From the NCBI RefSeq assembly GCF_036924535.1, contig NZ_JAZHRT010000001.1, positions 7,254,001 through 7,318,000 of the forward strand: DNA of 64,000 nucleotides, written 5' to 3'. Made by a program: the position numbers and the translations under genes. The notes under the pieces were generated by a model. That model saw only the letters and a list, made by a program, of their open reading frames with translations, was not told the DNA's origin and ran no database searches. Positions 5,673 to 11,536 of the stretch are shown here, one piece after another; within the stretch, counting starts at the first letter, position 1; each line of letters begins with the position of its first letter. This DNA comes from Bradyrhizobium sp. AZCC 2262 (GTDB taxonomy: Bacteria > Pseudomonadota > Alphaproteobacteria > Rhizobiales > Xanthobacteraceae).

Positions 5673-7584
5673 CTACACCCTGCCCTTCAGCGCGTCGCCG
5701 ATTTCTTCGAGCACCTTGGGGTCCTCGATGGTGGCCGGCATGGTCCAGCTCTCGCCGTCGGCGATCTTCTTGATGGTGCCGCGCAGGATTTTTCCCGAGC
5801 GCGTCTTCGGCAATCGCCCAACCGTGATCGCGAGCTTGAAGGCAGCGACGGGCCCGAGCTTGTCGCGCACCAGCGCCACGATCTCCTGTTCGATCTCGGC
5901 AGGCGCGCGCGTCACGCCGGCCTTCAGCACCAGGAAGCCGCAAGGTACTTCGCCCTTGATCGCGTCCTTGATGCCGAGCACCGCACATTCGGCGACGTCG
6001 GCATGCGAGGCGAGAATTTCCTCCATGCCGCCGGTGGAGAGCCGGTGGCCGGCGACATTGATGATGTCGTCGGTGCGGCCCATCACCCAGACATAACCGT
6101 CCTCATCCTTGTAGCCGGCGTCCGATGTCTTGTAGTAGCCGGGAAACTCCGTGAGGTAGGCTTCCCTGAAACGCGCGTCCTGCTCCCACAAGGTCGGCAG
6201 GCAGGCTGGCGGCATCGGCAGCTTGATCACGATCGAGCCCATGGTGCCCGCGGGCACCGGCCTCGATGCCTCGTCGACCACGTCGACCTGATAGCCCGGC
6301 ATCGGCACCGTCGGCGAGCCGTGCTTGACCGGCAGCATGCCCAGCCCCACCGGATTGCCGGCAATGCACCAGCCGGTTTCGGTCTGCCACCAGTGATCGA
6401 TCACAGGCACCTTCAACTGCGCTTCCGCCCATTCCACCGTCGGCGGATCGGCGCGCTCGCCGGCCCAGAAACAGGGTACGGAATTTCGACAGATCGTATT
6501 TGCGGATGAATGCGCCGTCGGGGTCTTCCTTGCGGATGGCGCGGAAGGCGGTCGGCGCGGTGAACAAAGCGACGGCCTTGTGCTCTGATATCACCCGCCA
6601 GAACGCGCCCGCGTCCGGCGTGCCGATCGGCTTGCCCTCATACATGATGGAAGCGGCGCCATGAATCAGCGGGCCGTAGACGATGTAGCTGTGGCCGACC
6701 ACCCAGCCGATGTCGGAGCCGCACCACCAGACTTCGCCGGGCTTGACGCCGTAGAGGTTGAACATCGACCATTTCAGCGCGACCAGGTGTCCCCCATTGT
6801 CGCGCACGACGCCCTTGGGGATGCCCGTGGTGCCTGACGTGTAGAGAATGTAGAGCGGATCGGTCGCGAGCACCGGCGTGCAGGGCGCGGCCTTGCCGGC
6901 TTTGAGCGCGGCGCCGCGGAGCGTTGCCCAATCGTGATCGCGGCCGGGCGCAAGTTCGCAAACCTGCTGCGGCCGTTGCAGGATGACGCAAGCCTGCGGC
7001 TTCACGCTTGAAAGCTTAATCGCCTCGTCGAGCAGCGGCTTGTATTGCACAATGCGGCCGGGTTCGATCCCGCAGCTCGCCGAAAAAATCAGTTTCGGCT
7101 TGGCGTCCTCGATACGCGTCGCGAGCTCTTTCGCGGCAAAGCCCCCGAACACGACTGAGTGCACCGCGCCGATCCGCGCGCAGGCCAGCATCGCAAACAC
7201 CGCTTCCGGCACCAGCGGCATATAGAGGATGACGCGGTCGCCCTTGGCGACGCCGAAATCGGCCATCACGGCGGCGAGCGTCTGCACTTCCTTGAGCATC
7301 TCGGCATAGGTGAATTTCGAGATGGTGTTGGTGAGCGGCGAATCGTGGATCAGCGCCACCTGGTCGGCGCGTCCGCCTGCGACGTGACGGTCAAGCGCGT
7401 TGTAGCAGGTGTTGACCACGGCGCCAACGAACCAGCGGCCATACGCGCCCATCGAGGGATCGAATATCTTTTTGGCCGGCTCGATCCAGTCGATCTCACG
7501 CGCAGCCTCGGCCCAGAAGCCTTCGGGGTCGCTGAGCGAGCGGGCATGGACCTCGTGGTAGCGGCTGTTGTTCTGAACGTTCAT
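5673..7584 (-). pseudogene. prpE: Propionyl-CoA synthetase, interrupted by a +1 frameshift
   Basis: Two overlapping frames together make one acyl-CoA synthetase of about 635 residues. The N-terminal part (7584 down to about 6466) has the ACS N-terminal domain, the nucleotide-binding P-loop YTSGTTGIPKGVV and the PrpE-type VRDNGGHLVALKWSM stretch. The C-terminal part (from about 6463 to 5673) has WWQTETGW, the YKTSDAGYKDEDGY hinge and the acetylatable lysine in PKTRSGKIL. The frame changes in a run of three C at 6464-6466 (+ strand). Removing one base restores the LFLAGERADPP continuity expected for the family. The enzyme would convert propionate, CoA and ATP to propionyl-CoA. It is either a true pseudogene or a one-base assembly error. 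Confidence 0.88.
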
Positions 7585-7786: not shown

Positions 7787-9147
7787 CTACTGCCGGGCAA
7801 TCGTATTGAGCTTCTCCAGCCGGTCCTCCATCGCCTGACGGAGGTCATAACCGCGCTTGCCGAACGAGGCGTTGCGCTTCTCGATGAAGTCGCGCTGCTG
7901 CCGGGTCAGCGCCAGCGCCGCGCGATGGCTGTCGGATTCCGCGCTCGCGATCACCCGCAGAAACACGTCGTTGATGTTGCGGTCGAGCTGGGCAAGGCCG
8001 GGGTCGGCGCAGATCGCCTTTTCGACCTGGCGTTTTGCGGTGGCGCAATTGAAGCTCGGCAGGTTCTTCTGGGAAGTGGGCGAACCCAGCCGTTCGATTT
8101 CCTGCGCGACGTCCTTGTGATTGGCGGCGGCGGTGCTGTCGGAGGGATTGAGACGAACCGCTTCCGCATAGTCCTGCAGCGCGCGGCCGCGGTCGCCCTT
8201 CTTGACCCAGGCTGCGCCACGGTTGTTCCAGGCGCGCTGGAATTTTGGATCGAGTTTCAACGCAGCACCGTAATCGGCAATCGCGCGGTCGTAATCCTTT
8301 AGCGCCTGATAGGCGTCGCCACGGTTGGTCAGGAATTTCGCCTCGGGGCGGATCATGATCGCTTCGTCGTAGTCGGCGATCGCGCGTGCGTAGTCGCCAT
8401 TGCCGGCAAGGTCGAGGCCGCGATTGTCGAAGAATTCCGGCTGCGTAGGATCGATCCGGATCGCCGCGCTCACATCCTCGATCGCTCGTTCCGAGCGGCC
8501 GAGCTTGCGGTAGGCCGCGGAACGGTTGCTGTAGGTCCGTGCACGGTGCGGCTCGAGACGAAGGGCTTCATCGTAGTCGGCGATCGCCTTCTGATATTCG
8601 CCCTTGAAATACCAGGCGGCGCCGCGATCCGAAAAGACCTGCGCAAGATCGGGCTTGAGCCGCAGCGCCTCGTTATAGTCCTCGATGGCGCGGTCGTATT
8701 TTTTGGCGTTGTTGAAGGCGTTGCCGCGGTTGGCGTATCCGTTGGCATTGTCGGGCTCGAGCCTGATGGCCTGATTCAGCGCCTCGAACGCAGCCTCGAT
8801 CTTGCCGGTCTGGCGAAGGATTTCACCGCGGGCGCGGAAGGCGCGGGCCCGGTTAGGATCCTTGGCGACGACGGCATCGATTTCGGCCAAGGCCTTGCCG
8901 GTCTGGCCGCTATTATGCAACGCGGCGGCGCGGGTAATCCTGGCGTCGAGCCGGTCGCCCTCCGGTGCGTCGCCGGATTGTCGATCAGCGCGGTGCAAAC
9001 CTCGATCACCTTCGCGGGCTCGGCGGCCGAAAGCGCCGCGCAGATGACCGGCGGTTCGGCGGCCGGCTGAGCGGGGGTGCCGAAGGAGGTCAGGATTGCA
9101 ATGGTAAAGGCCGCGCTCGCGGCAAATCGCGAAACAAATGATCGCAT
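7787..9147 (-). pseudogene. TPR protein with LprI-like (DUF1311) C-terminus, frameshifted near its N-terminus
   Basis: The natural start is at 9147, where GAAGAG precedes an ATG followed by a signal peptide (MRSFVSRFAASAAFTIAIL) and a short segment ending CTALIDNPAT. At about 8964-8970 the frame shifts. The other frame then continues with about ten tetratricopeptide units (phrases such as AFRARGEILRQTGKIEAAFEAL and NRGNAFNNAKKYDRAIEDY). The end is a small domain with FNCATAKRQVEKAICADP and DLRQAMEDRL, like LprI/DUF1311 periplasmic proteins. The paralog at 10525-11292 reads straight through the matching position, which supports a frameshift here. Export to the periplasm is expected; the function is unknown. 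Confidence 0.8.
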
Positions 9148-9333
9148 AGTCGGCTCTTCAAAATAAATGAAGTACGCGCGGTTATGCCGCGCCCGATCAC
9201 TAGGTCGCCGCTGATCTTCCAAAGGTTCGAAGGCTCGGGGGCATCTACCCCAATCGGGCCAATACGGCCAGGGCTCAGGACCACCATAAATCGGGGTCCG
9301 AGCCCCTTGTCGTCCGTCCCGCGGCGCTATGTG

Positions 9334-9362
9334 TTGACCTGTATCCGCGCATAGCCTAGGGA
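9334..9362 (+). promoter_or_regulatory. Candidate promoter of the trpS leader transcript
   Basis: TTGACC at 9334-9339 resembles a -35 box. A weak TAGGGA lies 17 bases downstream. If that -10 were used, the transcript would begin almost at the leader ATG, so the -10 assignment is doubtful. Only the -35 match is reasonable evidence. Confidence 0.3.
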
Positions 9363-9369
9363 GACCTCC

Positions 9370-9417
9370 ATGAAACGCGCGATGATCGTTGTCACGCTTT
9401 GGTGGCTGCCCTTCTAA
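9370..9417 (+). CDS. Trp-codon leader peptide of the trpS attenuator
   Basis: A 15-codon ORF encodes MKRAMIVVTLWWLPF and then stops (TAA at 9415-9417). Two adjacent Trp codons (TGG TGG) sit at 9400-9405, close to the end. GGGAGA at 9359-9364 provides a ribosome-binding site 5 bases upstream of the ATG. The stop codon lies just before a set of mutually exclusive RNA stems and a terminator, and the gene behind them encodes tryptophanyl-tRNA synthetase. This is the classic layout of a ribosome-mediated attenuation leader: stalling on Trp codons reports low charged tRNA-Trp. Confidence 0.88.
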   Translation: MKRAMIVVTLWWLPF

Positions 9418-9475
9418 CAGGGCGGCCGGACGTTTCACTGCATCTGGGGCCGCCGCAAGGGCGGCCTTTTGTTTT
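9404..9475 (+). promoter_or_regulatory. Transcription attenuator with competing stems upstream of trpS
   Basis: Four segments can pair alternatively. Segment 1 (9404-9412, overlapping the second Trp codon) pairs with segment 2 (9419-9427) over 9 bp with one G-U. Segment 2 (9421-9427, GGCGGCC) pairs with segment 3 (9448-9454, GGCCGCC) over 7 G/C pairs as the antiterminator. Segment 3 pairs with segment 4 (9460-9466) as the terminator. A ribosome stalled at the Trp codons would cover segment 1, free segment 2 to capture segment 3, and let transcription reach trpS. Confidence 0.85.
9448..9475 (+). terminator. Attenuator terminator hairpin
   Basis: A 7-bp G/C stem (9448-9454 with 9460-9466), 5-base loop GCAAG, followed by TTTTGTTTTG. 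It is 46 bases before the trpS ATG and shares its left arm with the antiterminator. Confidence 0.88.
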
Positions 9476-9521
9476 GATGATCCCCCCATGCGGTGCTCCC
9501 CTCATCTCACGAGGACACCTC

Positions 9522-10523
9522 ATGACCAGACCCGTTATTCTGACAGGCGACCGCACCACCGGCCCGCTACACATTGGCCACTATGCCGGATCGTTGCGCA
9601 ACCGTCTGCGATTTCAGGAGACCCACGAGCAGTTCCTGCTCCTGGCCGATACGCAAGCGCTGACCGACAATGCTCACGCCCCCGACAAGGTGCGGTTTGG
9701 TGTGATGGAGGTGGCGCTCGACTACCTTGCCGTTGGGATCGACCCGGCCAAGACGACGATCTGCCTGCAATCCCACCTGCCCGCGCTGGCCGAGTTGTCG
9801 ATGCTCTATTTGAACTTCGTGACCGTCGCCAGATTGGAGCGCAACCCCACGATCAAGGACGAGATCCGCGGTCGCAGCTTCGGACGCGACATCCCGGCAG
9901 GCTTCCTGTGCTATCCTGCGGCGCAGGCGGCGGACATTACCGCGTTCAAGGCTACCGTCGTGCCGGTGGGCGAGGATCAGGCGCCGCTGATCGAACAGAC
10001 CAACGAGATCGTGCGCCGTATCAACACCACCGCCAGACGGACCATCCTGCCGGAAGCGCAGGCTGTCATTCCGCAGGTGGGGCGGCTGCCGGGCGTGGAC
10101 GGAAAAGCGAAAATGTCGAAATCCGGCGGCAACGCCATCGCCCTTTCGGCCTCGCCGGACGAGATCACGGCGGCAGTGAAGGCGATGTTCACTGACCCGA
10201 ATCATCTGCGGATCGAAGATCCCGGACAAGTGGAAGGCAATGTCGTCTTCACTTATCTGGATGCTTTCGACGGGGACCGCATCACGCTGGAAGAGCTGAA
10301 GGCGCAGTATCGGCGGGGAGGAATAGGCGACAGCAAGATCAAGCGCCGACTCGAAGACATCTTGCAGGCGCTGATTCGACCTGCGCGAGAACGAAGGACG
10401 CAACTGGCGAAAGATCCGGCCTATGTGCTCGACGTAATTCGCCGCGGTACGGAAAAGGCGAGGAACCGGACCGAGACAACGAAGCGGGAAGTTGTCGAAG
10501 GCCTCGGACTGTTCATGTTGTAA
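9522..10523 (+). CDS. trpS: Tryptophanyl-tRNA synthetase, probably the auxiliary type
   Basis: This 333-residue class I synthetase activates Trp and charges tRNA-Trp in the cytoplasm. The start at 9522 is preceded by GAGG at 9511-9514. It has the HIGH-type motif HIGHYAGSL near residue 16, the GEDQ segment in VVPVGEDQAP, and KMSKS near residue 195. The opening GDRTTGPLHIGHYAGSL is closer to the second, drug-resistant TrpRS class of Streptomyces and Deinococcus than to the E. coli GAQPSGELTIGNY form. So it may be an extra copy beside a housekeeping enzyme elsewhere; this cannot be settled from the window. Its mRNA is preceded by a Trp attenuator. It ends 1 base from the convergent TPR gene's stop. 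Confidence 0.93.
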   Translation: MTRPVILTGDRTTGPLHIGHYAGSLRNRLRFQETHEQFLLLADTQALTDNAHAPDKVRFGVMEVALDYLAVGIDPAKTTICLQSHLPALAELSMLYLNFVTVARLERNPTIKDEIRGRSFGRDIPAGFLCYPAAQAADITAFKATVVPVGEDQAPLIEQTNEIVRRINTTARRTILPEAQAVIPQVGRLPGVDGKAKMSKSGGNAIALSASPDEITAAVKAMFTDPNHLRIEDPGQVEGNVVFTYLDAFDGDRITLEELKAQYRRGGIGDSKIKRRLEDILQALIRPARERRTQLAKDPAYVLDVIRRGTEKARNRTETTKREVVEGLGLFML

Positions 10524-10524
10524 G

Positions 10525-11292
10525 CTAGTATCCGTCGATTCCGTTGATCTGTTGCAGGCGGCCGCGCATCGCTCTTTTCAGATCGTAGCCGGGCCGGCCG
10601 TATTCCGCGTTGCGACGGGAGATATATTCCTCCTGCTCCCGCCGCAGCTTGCGCGCCTGCTGTGGCGTCATCTTCTCGGCGACGGCCCTGACATACGACC
10701 CCTGGACCTCGCGATCGAGATCGGCGAGCTCGGGATTGGCGCAGATCGCCTTTTCCACCTTGCGGCGGGCGGTGGCGCAGTTGAAACTCGGCTTGCCGGC
10801 GATCGCCTTCAGCGCGCCCAACCGCTCCAGCTCCAGCGCCAGCGCCCGGTGGTTGGCTCTGGCCGCAACATGGTCCGGGTTCAGCTTGATCGCCGCGGCA
10901 AAATCGGCCACCGCCTTCGGCAGGTCGCCCTTCTTGCGCCAGAGTTCGCCGCGCGCGTTGTGGATATCGGCGTTCGCCGGATCGAGCCGCAGCACACCGT
11001 CATAGTCGGCGACGGCGCGATCGATCATGTCCTTGCGCTCATAGGCGGCGCCACGCGCGATCAGCGCCTTGATGCGGTCGGCCTTTTCGGTCTTTGCGTT
11101 GTCGATCAACGCGCCGCAGGTCGCGACCGTCTTGTCGTCATCACGCGCAAGCGCCGCGGCCAGGCAAAGCGCGGGATCGACCCGCAAATCCTTGACCGGC
11201 TCGGCACCGGTCGCCGAAGCGTCCTGCGCAAACGCGATCCATAGCAAGGAAGCCGCCGCGGCCAGCTTGCGGATGTCGAGATGGAATCGCAT
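10525..11292 (-). CDS. Secreted TPR protein with LprI-like C-terminal domain (paralog of the 7787-9147 gene)
   Basis: The start at 11292 gives a 255-residue protein with an N-terminal signal peptide (MRFHLDIRKLAAAASLLWIAF, then a short mature N-terminus). A helical lead-in CGALIDNAKTEKADR is followed by two or three TPR units (ARGAAYERKDMIDRAVADYD, ARGELWRKKGDLPKAVADF). The C-terminal domain has FNCATARRKVEKAICANPELADLDR and RRNAEYGRPGYDLKRAM, matching the other paralog almost motif for motif. The two TPR/LprI genes sit on either side of trpS, both on the minus strand. Function is unknown; a periplasmic location is expected. Confidence 0.8.
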   Translation of the reverse strand: MRFHLDIRKLAAAASLLWIAFAQDASATGAEPVKDLRVDPALCLAAALARDDDKTVATCGALIDNAKTEKADRIKALIARGAAYERKDMIDRAVADYDGVLRLDPANADIHNARGELWRKKGDLPKAVADFAAAIKLNPDHVAARANHRALALELERLGALKAIAGKPSFNCATARRKVEKAICANPELADLDREVQGSYVRAVAEKMTPQQARKLRREQEEYISRRNAEYGRPGYDLKRAMRGRLQQINGIDGY

Positions 11293-11309
11293 CAATTGAT
11301 CCGGGAAGC

Positions 11310-11341
11310 CTTGTATCGGGGAAGTCTTGTATCGGGGAAGC
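11310..11341. repeat. Short tandem repeat, two 16-base units
   Basis: CTTGTATCGGGGAAG followed by T, then the same 15 bases followed by C. It lies just upstream of the TPR gene's start on the minus strand, so it belongs to that gene's 5' region. A partial third copy (CCGGGAAG) precedes it. Confidence 0.7.
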
Positions 11342-11536
11342 CTTGGATTGCCGCCCGATCCTAGCAAGCCATCCGCTTTTTCGACAACGGGCGCGTGCGA
11401 GTATCCGTTTTCGTACGGGGATAGATTCCGGCTGAAACGTGACACGCGCGAAAACATCATCGTCCGCACGCGAACGGATAGGTTCGGTCACGAAATTTGT
11501 CTTGAACCTTTCACGGGTATCGCAGACTCAATATCC

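What the first reader, a model, noticed from the sequence alone, without database searches (positions are those of the whole stretch)
9334..9540. Complete Trp attenuator in front of an auxiliary-type tryptophanyl-tRNA synthetase
A 15-codon leader with two adjacent Trp codons, its own ribosome-binding site and stop is followed by three mutually exclusive stems ending in a T-run terminator. Then comes trpS with its own ribosome-binding site. All pairings are seen in the sequence: 1:2 over 9 bp, 2:3 over 7 G/C pairs, 3:4 over 7 G/C pairs. Ribosome-mediated attenuation of an indolmycin-resistant TrpRS is described in Streptomyces; I know of no description in rhizobia. It would sense uncharged tRNA-Trp caused by starvation or by TrpRS-inhibiting antibiotics.
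Basis: partly seen in the sequence, partly recalled or inferred. Interest (0 to 1): 0.85.

Follow-up and report, generated by a model that had tools for sequence, protein, structure and literature searches.

The report
Trp attenuator on backup tryptophan-loading enzyme
A short RNA switch that appears to read tryptophan supply through the speed of a ribosome sits in front of a spare tryptophan-loading enzyme in a soil bacterium; similar switch-and-enzyme pairs occur in other bacteria and on plasmids, which suggests a portable backup against tryptophan starvation or drugs that block the main enzyme.

Summary
The anatomy holds. Window 9370-9417 encodes MKRAMIVVTLWWLPF*, followed by strands 1:2 (9 bp), 2:3 (7 bp plus extension), 3:4 (7 G/C pairs) and a T-run, then a second, auxiliary TrpRS of TrpRS II type. 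All 43 fetched Bradyrhizobium copies with a 5' end have an in-frame Trp-Trp leader (44 fetched); 0 of 20 housekeeping trpS upstreams do. Stems 1:2 and 2:3 covary; 3:4 is invariant. One correction: the leader's 'own ribosome-binding site' overlaps the -10 box and is not conserved; promoter-to-ATG spacing is, so the mRNA probably starts at the AUG. Leaders also precede TrpRS II genes in beta- and gammaproteobacteria and in 10 of 12 fetched plasmid-collection loci, but only 37 of 80 loci in a wider set. In 6 of 6 genomes where TrpRS II is the only TrpRS the leader is absent. In 25 of the 43 Bradyrhizobium copies the terminator is missing and another covarying structure reaches the trpS Shine-Dalgarno. 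Trp attenuation of trpS is known from Streptomyces; this is a proteobacterial member. No expression data; drug resistance is inferred.

The parts
9334..9339 (+). -35 box TTGACC of the predicted promoter
   Evidence: TTG at this distance from the leader ATG in 60 of 63 distinct sequences, 15% at random positions
9357..9362 (+). -10 box TAGGGA; overlaps the GGAG read as a ribosome-binding site
   Evidence: TA at -14..-11 in 34 of 63, 7% at random; transcript start at about 9370 is inference
9370..9417 (+). leader ORF MKRAMIVVTLWWLPF*, Trp codons 9400-9405
   Evidence: Trp-Trp leader in 43 of 43 fetched Bradyrhizobium copies with a 5' end, 44 fetched
9404..9412 (+). strand 1; pairs with strand 2, overlaps the second Trp codon
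9419..9427 (+). strand 2; pairs with 1, or (9421-9430) with 3 and its flank
9446..9454 (+). strand 3; pairs with 2 (antiterminator) or 4 (terminator)
9460..9468 (+). strand 4; 3' arm of the terminator
9467..9475 (+). T-run TTTTGTTTT; predicted end of the terminated transcript
9488..9524 (+). predicted hairpin that hides the trpS Shine-Dalgarno (9511-9515) and start codon; relatives have a hairpin here with other sequence
9522..10523 (+). auxiliary trpS, TrpRS II type, 333 aa

Best explanation
A ribosome-mediated transcription attenuator of the trp type controls an auxiliary tryptophanyl-tRNA synthetase. RNA polymerase starts at or next to the leader AUG and a ribosome translates the leader. 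With enough charged tRNA-Trp it reaches the stop codon and masks strand 2; strand 3 pairs with 4 and transcription ends at the T-run. When tRNA-Trp is uncharged (Trp starvation, or the housekeeping TrpRS inhibited or overwhelmed) the ribosome stalls at Trp-Trp and masks strand 1; strand 2 pairs with 3 before 4 is made, and polymerase reads on into trpS. The backup enzyme then recharges tRNA-Trp. Shown here: anatomy, conservation, covariation of 1:2 and 2:3, a second trpS, association with auxiliary status. Inferred: transcription start, stalling, readthrough and the physiological signal.
For: Trp-Trp leader in 43 of 43 Bradyrhizobium copies with a fetched 5' end (44 fetched; L129 is a fragment without its 5' part) against 0 of 20 housekeeping trpS upstreams from genomes that hold both. 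Stem 1:2: 94.0% of cells paired, 9 double-change cells, 0/500 shuffles. Stem 2:3, 5 alignable pairs: 99.1% paired, 9 double-change cells, 0/500. Stem 3:4 paired in 23 of 23; other hairpin sequences with a T-rich tail in several betas. Mean energies of 1:2, 2:3, 3:4 -16.5, -16.4, -17.1 over 29 loci. A covariance model of 16 trpS attenuators hits 10 of 385 alphaproteobacterial genomes; three of the hits precede anthranilate synthase trpE(G) genes with Trp-Trp-Trp leaders. Of 43 genomes searched for TrpRS genes, 31 of 37 with a second TrpRS have the leader, 0 of 6 without (Fisher p 1.5e-4, genomes related). In Salmonella trpS2, mtr and trpABCDE fall together in a tolC mutant (PMC12506092, one passage); a transposon study suggests trpS2 may cover for trpS (PMC3487940, one passage); a Salmonella TrpRS II copy, which I take to be trpS2, has a Trp-Trp leader and hairpin.
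Against: 3:4 does not covary in the alphaproteobacterial set. Seven of 23 sequences break one pair of 1:2, and the number of pairs with a double change (2) is reached by 169/500 shuffles. 2:3 slid by 1 or 2 columns still pairs in 94-96% of cells. The minimum-energy fold of the stalled-ribosome segment of the window still shows the terminator, so antitermination depends on the order of synthesis. The trpS SD lies in a hairpin that simple transcription attenuation does not explain. In 25 of 43 Bradyrhizobium copies the leader has no such terminator. In the wider set only 37 of 80 loci have the leader, and 1 of 23 low-identity alphaproteobacterial loci. No expression data.
Confidence: 0.85

Rival explanations
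1. The leader mainly makes a trans-acting attenuator sRNA or leader peptide, as rnTrpL/peTrpL of Sinorhizobium do, and trpS readthrough is secondary.
For: The predicted transcript is leaderless and about 105 nt, like S. meliloti trpL, which starts with its AUG and yields a dual-function sRNA and peptide (PMC10117765, passages; PMC7298713, search listing).
Against: The peptides vary a good deal apart from Trp-Trp and its neighbours. In the own genome the model's only strong site is the one before trpS.
Confidence: 0.1
2. Control is mainly translational: the hairpin over the trpS Shine-Dalgarno is the output, and the hairpin before the T-run is an accessory.
For: Predicted SD-region hairpins: mean -15.4 kcal/mol, P(SD paired) 0.80 in 28 terminator-type loci; -14.8, 0.80 in 39 terminator-less; -14.4, 0.58 in 17 beta loci with leader; -6.2, 0.52 in 52 without leader, among them A+T-rich Acinetobacter. 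In the terminator-less type the stem that joins strand 3 to the SD region covaries (42 double-change cells, 0/500; 28 when slid by one column).
Against: All 23 loci of the window's group have a G/C hairpin with T-run at the same place. The stem over the SD itself scores little above shuffles in the terminator-less set. I found no pairing by which a stall would open the SD hairpin.
Confidence: 0.15
3. A relic: leader and terminator are inherited but not functional.
For: At least five Bradyrhizobium copies of the gene are broken or cut short while their leaders persist.
Against: The window's trpS is intact and 1:2, 2:3 and 3:4 are all formable; its Leu-Pro codons form a pair that is a mismatch in its nearest relatives.
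Confidence: 0.04

Closest known systems
Trp attenuator of Streptomyces trpS (S. avermitilis trpS2 candidate, PMC1262725; trpL2/trpS of S. lividans, PMC8079986)
   Same: leader peptide with Trp codon(s), hairpins, a trpS gene downstream (passages)
   Different: S. lividans leader has one Trp and no U-rich tract; other phylum. An experimental Streptomyces paper on this is recalled only; its look-up failed
trpL/rnTrpL attenuator of trpE(G) in alphaproteobacteria
   Same: Trp leader, 1:2, 2:3, 3:4 logic; three trpE(G) attenuators found by the trpS model; the own genome has MNTVISPSRLWWRTS before trpE(G), read by eye
   Different: controls trpE(G), not a synthetase; the model does not pick up the own genome's trpE(G) attenuator
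Caulobacter small leader CDS in front of trpS (PMC4117421)
   Same: translated leader before trpS in an alphaproteobacterium (passages)
   Different: no attenuator of trpS described in the passages seen; which TrpRS type it is was not checked
Deinococcus TrpRS II
   Same: closest solved structures (2a4m, 1yi8; about 376 bits against 223 for the next)
   Different: there linked to nitric oxide synthase (PMC9437257, passages); not tested here

Membership tests
ribosome-mediated Trp transcription attenuator | short leader ORF with tandem Trp codons upstream of a Trp-related gene | tested here: met
ribosome-mediated Trp transcription attenuator | mutually exclusive 1:2, 2:3, 3:4 pairing, supported by covariation | tested here: met
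   no covariation of 3:4 in the alpha set
ribosome-mediated Trp transcription attenuator | intrinsic terminator (3:4 plus T-run) | tested here: met
   for the window; not met in the 25 terminator-less Bradyrhizobium relatives
ribosome-mediated Trp transcription attenuator | Trp-dependent readthrough in vivo | not testable with these tools
   no expression data
auxiliary TrpRS | second TrpRS beside a housekeeping one | tested here: met
   two matches over the cut-off in the genome
indolmycin-resistant TrpRS | changed indolmycin-binding residues | tested here: inconclusive
   His43 of B. stearothermophilus TrpRS is Gln in 147 of 149 translated TrpRS II, the window included, and His in the housekeeping enzyme; Asp132 and Gln147 kept in 149 of 149. 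H43N gives resistance (PMC4899734, passages); Gln is untested
indolmycin-resistant TrpRS | measured resistance | not testable with these tools
   needs an enzyme or deletion assay

The most novel reading that the evidence does not exclude
Promoter, leaderless Trp leader, attenuator and TrpRS II form one portable, self-regulated unit spread through alpha-, beta- and gammaproteobacteria and onto plasmids. It acts as an inducible tolerance gene against inhibitors of the housekeeping TrpRS, lacks its attenuator where it is the only TrpRS, and in one large branch has exchanged the terminator for an RNA switch that reaches the Shine-Dalgarno.
Probability: 0.42. Interest if true: 0.78.

Novelty: new member of a known kind. 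Interest (0 to 1): 0.6.

Why it matters
It gives a clear, testable case of a backup synthetase that could be switched on by the failure it repairs, in soil and plant-associated bacteria and, by homology, in enteric bacteria and on plasmids. If the enzyme resists TrpRS inhibitors, the pair is an inducible tolerance gene. The mix of terminator and terminator-less types in one gene family is also a natural experiment in how attenuators change their output.

Tried and rejected
Rfam: no family at the gathering score at this site in ten related loci (one fluoride riboswitch elsewhere in L040). For window 9000-10000 I ran it at E up to 1; the five matches, among them isrD and mmgR/suhB on the terminator hairpin, are below their gathering scores. 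A pairing by which a stalled ribosome would open the Shine-Dalgarno hairpin: looked for by eye in both groups, not found. In the terminator-less group strand 3 also sits in a local hairpin (mean -18.4 kcal/mol, mean z -2.4 by simple shuffles in 36 sequences, four of them with z above 0), so the order of events stays open; Rho-dependent termination is possible and untested. Link to nitric oxide synthase: not tested. Phages: 31 records match the protein, several of them bacterial contigs by name; only the Salmonella one (H33) was fetched.

On checking I withdrew one reading: I had taken the edge of similarity at the -35 box in L004 as unrelated flanks. One search shows that L004 to L006 share the window's flanks wholly or in part. 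The odds of the novel case went from 0.45 to 0.42 for this.

Rows dropped or set aside. A1: 23 of 23 listed terminator-type loci; the later ones (L130-L132, L159-L161) not added. A3 and model R1: 16 of those 23. A2: 36 of 37 listed (L052 left out); L053, L054, L057, L133-L135 not added; six rows gave no usable translation (L126, L127, L128, L139, L141, L156). Tree: L006, L122, L125 and three duplicates left out of 149, 143 kept. The terminator detector also flagged weak or doubtful hairpins in L019, L047, L051, L087, L111 and L135; L051, L111 and L135 were recoded by hand as no terminator, the others fell under the energy limit. In one search the script took an inner ATG for L032, counted as a miss.

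Full report
The sequence. The window lies in a 9.48 Mb one-contig genome; its kin retrieved by name include Bradyrhizobium species, and I call the genus Bradyrhizobium on that ground. At 9370-9417 an ORF encodes MKRAMIVVTLWWLPF, with Trp codons at 9400-9405. Downstream, 9404-9412 pairs with 9419-9427 (1:2, 9 bp), 9421-9427 with 9448-9454 (2:3, 7 bp, extended by 9428-9430 with 9443-9445) and 9446-9454 with 9460-9468 (3:4), before TTTTGTTTT; trpS starts at 9522. The three structures have nearly the same energy, -18.7, -17.1 and -17.4 kcal/mol. Of 2000 dinucleotide shuffles, 37 and 161 reach the energies of 1:2 and 2:3 alone, 0 that of 3:4, and 0 have all three at or below -12.2, a limit chosen after seeing relatives.

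The gene. The 333-aa protein scores over the trpS cut-off. Its closest solved relatives are Deinococcus TrpRS II. The genome has a second trpS, the housekeeping type, 31% identical; I see no Trp-Trp leader in its upstream DNA.

Conservation. In 195 genomes of the genus, 41 by my count hold an auxiliary copy. I fetched 44 copies; L129 is a fragment without its 5' part. The other 43 all have an in-frame Trp-Trp leader, about 100 to 190 bases upstream of trpS. Of 20 housekeeping trpS upstreams, all from genomes that also hold the auxiliary gene, none has one in about 400 bases. Of the 43, 18 have the window's terminator type and 25 do not (one of the 25, L019, has a doubtful hairpin). At least five of the 43 genes are broken or cut short (L122, L125, L126, L127, L128).

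Covariation. On 23 terminator-type sequences, 1:2 pairs in 94.0% of cells with 9 double-change cells, and the 5 alignable pairs of 2:3 in 99.1% with 9; 0 of 500 shuffles reach these counts. Against: 7 of 23 break one pair of 1:2; only two pairs in each stem carry the double changes, which 169 and 87 of 500 shuffles match; slid versions of 2:3 also pair in 94-96%. 3:4 pairs in all 23 but has no double change. Several betaproteobacterial leaders carry other hairpin sequences with a T-rich tail.

Leaderless start. Over 63 distinct upstream sequences from loci at least 68% identical to the window's protein, TTG stands at -39 to -31 from the leader ATG in 60 (15% at random positions) and TA at -14 to -11 in 34 (7%). 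An SD-like motif precedes the leader ATG in 6, the window included (8% at random), but precedes the trpS start in 58. I infer that the transcript starts at or next to the AUG, as described for S. meliloti trpL (PMC10117765, passages).

Spread. Among the nearest Bradyrhizobium copies, L006 shares both flanks with the window, L005 the downstream one, and L004 parts of both. In other lineages (L130, L159, L033, L160, L161) DNA similarity found by blastn runs from the promoter or leader to the trpS stop, with no flank match over 60 bases at E 1e-10; in more distant loci it ends earlier. This fits a moving unit but could also come from flanks that diverged faster; I did not compare gene content. 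In Alphaproteobacteria 33 of 385 genomes match at E below 1e-80: 7 at 69% identity or more, 26 at 48-56%. The leader is in 6 of the 7 (not L134) and in 1 of 23 fetched low-identity loci; those genomes are 0.6-2.1 Mb. In the 80 best loci of the named-genome scan, 37 have the leader, in alphas and in betas such as Burkholderia, Paraburkholderia, Massilia and Chromobacterium; Acinetobacter, Pandoraea, Undibacterium and others lack it. In the plasmid collection 90 records match the protein. I fetched 12 loci from it, 10 with a leader, and one Salmonella contig from the phage collection, with a leader; not in L176 and L185. One is an E. coli IncFIB plasmid with MNRNVVISHLRRWWLPA and a hairpin. Two of the 12 records are chromosome-sized (4.9 and 5.4 Mb) and one Vibrio record 1.7 Mb. 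In complete E. coli genomes the E. coli unit or a relative occurs in 2 of 5426, both on plasmids, one at 76.7% identity.

Auxiliary status. I searched 43 genomes for all TrpRS genes (44 handles, L038 not held). Six have no other TrpRS over the cut-off: none has the leader. Of the 37 with two, 31 have it; the six without are L049, L057 (Trp-Cys instead), L065, L083 (no start codon found), L094 and L096 (Fisher p 1.5e-4). The genomes are related, so these are not independent cases. Within Cupriavidus, C. basilensis with two enzymes has the leader; its sister branch of four (three searched, each with one enzyme) does not.

Two types of output. In 36 terminator-less sequences the leader is followed by GGAGCGGC or close to it, a strand 3 (GCCGCCG) and a late strand (CGGCGGC) next to the trpS Shine-Dalgarno. 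Strand 3 with the late strand pairs in 96.7% of cells with 42 double-change cells, 0 of 500 shuffles; slid by one column it still has 28. Strand 3 also has a local hairpin. The stem over the SD scores little above shuffles. L131 and L132 have a WWRS leader like this type and a T-run terminator, so the types intergrade. I cannot say how a stall is read out in the terminator-less type. In the terminator type too the trpS SD lies in a predicted hairpin. In the protein tree the alpha terminator-type rows form one branch of 27 with one terminator-less row, L037, inside; support for that branch is 94, short of the tool's star.

Origin. Model R1 finds one significant site in the own genome, before trpS, and one at E 0.47; it does not find the own trpE(G) attenuator. 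In 385 class genomes it gives 10 hits: four before TrpRS II genes, three before trpE(G) (family search: two over a cut-off, the third cut by its contig end), one before tyrS, and two weak ones not explained. The trpE(G) leader MNRSIMIARRWWWRS resembles the trpS leader MNRSILIANFWWLAD. Common descent with trpE(G) attenuators is possible, not shown.

Drug resistance. Of indolmycin-binding residues in B. stearothermophilus TrpRS, His43 is Gln in 147 of 149 TrpRS II; the others are L006, which has a gap there, and L125, a broken copy. Asp132 and Gln147 are kept in 149. H43N confers resistance (PMC4899734, passages). Gln here is untested, and it is also present where the enzyme is the only TrpRS. 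In S. griseus an auxiliary TrpRS is linked to self-resistance (PMC6804068, passages).

Literature. Predicted attenuator before S. avermitilis trpS2 (PMC1262725, passages); trpL2 before trpS in S. lividans (PMC8079986, passages); a leader CDS before Caulobacter trpS (PMC4117421, passages). Salmonella trpS2 changes together with trpABCDE and mtr (PMC12506092, one passage) and may substitute for trpS (PMC3487940, one passage). My ten searches show no description of this attenuator on proteobacterial TrpRS II; I judged most hits by the listing alone, and the library lacks most subscription journals.

Verdict. A well-supported Trp attenuator on an auxiliary TrpRS, a new member of a known kind, with family-wide features (wide spread including plasmids, absence in sole enzymes, two output types) that deserve experiments.

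Noticed in passing
L169, about 1480-1660: A leader MTEMMHITAVYFARLP (read by eye), promoter-like boxes, G/C hairpin and T-run lie directly upstream of tyrS in another alphaproteobacterium (tyrS over its cut-off): candidate attenuator of tyrS.
   Followed up: partly
A2 loci, e.g. L019, L040, L118: Terminator-less Trp leaders: strand 3 can pair with strand 2, with a local hairpin, and with a late strand beside the trpS Shine-Dalgarno; the readout is unexplained.
   Followed up: partly
window 9488-9524: The trpS Shine-Dalgarno and start codon lie in a predicted hairpin; relatives of the terminator type have one there with other sequence.
   Followed up: partly
L122, L125, L126, L127, L128, L129: Broken or truncated auxiliary trpS copies in some Bradyrhizobium genomes; leaders still present in all but L129.
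   Followed up: partly
plasmid records H45-H62: Eighteen Klebsiella plasmids match only the last 64% of the leader-trpS query, without the 5' part and leader.
   Followed up: no
window 5673-7584, - strand: A propionate--CoA ligase-like gene is split between two frames (6103-7584 matches profile positions 3-363, 5673-6437 positions 373-628), as if by a frameshift.
   Followed up: partly
window 7787-8998 and 10525-11469, - strand: trpS stands between two genes with tetratricopeptide repeats; the second also has an LprI match.
   Followed up: partly
L040 168-230, - strand: Fluoride riboswitch above its gathering score.
   Followed up: no
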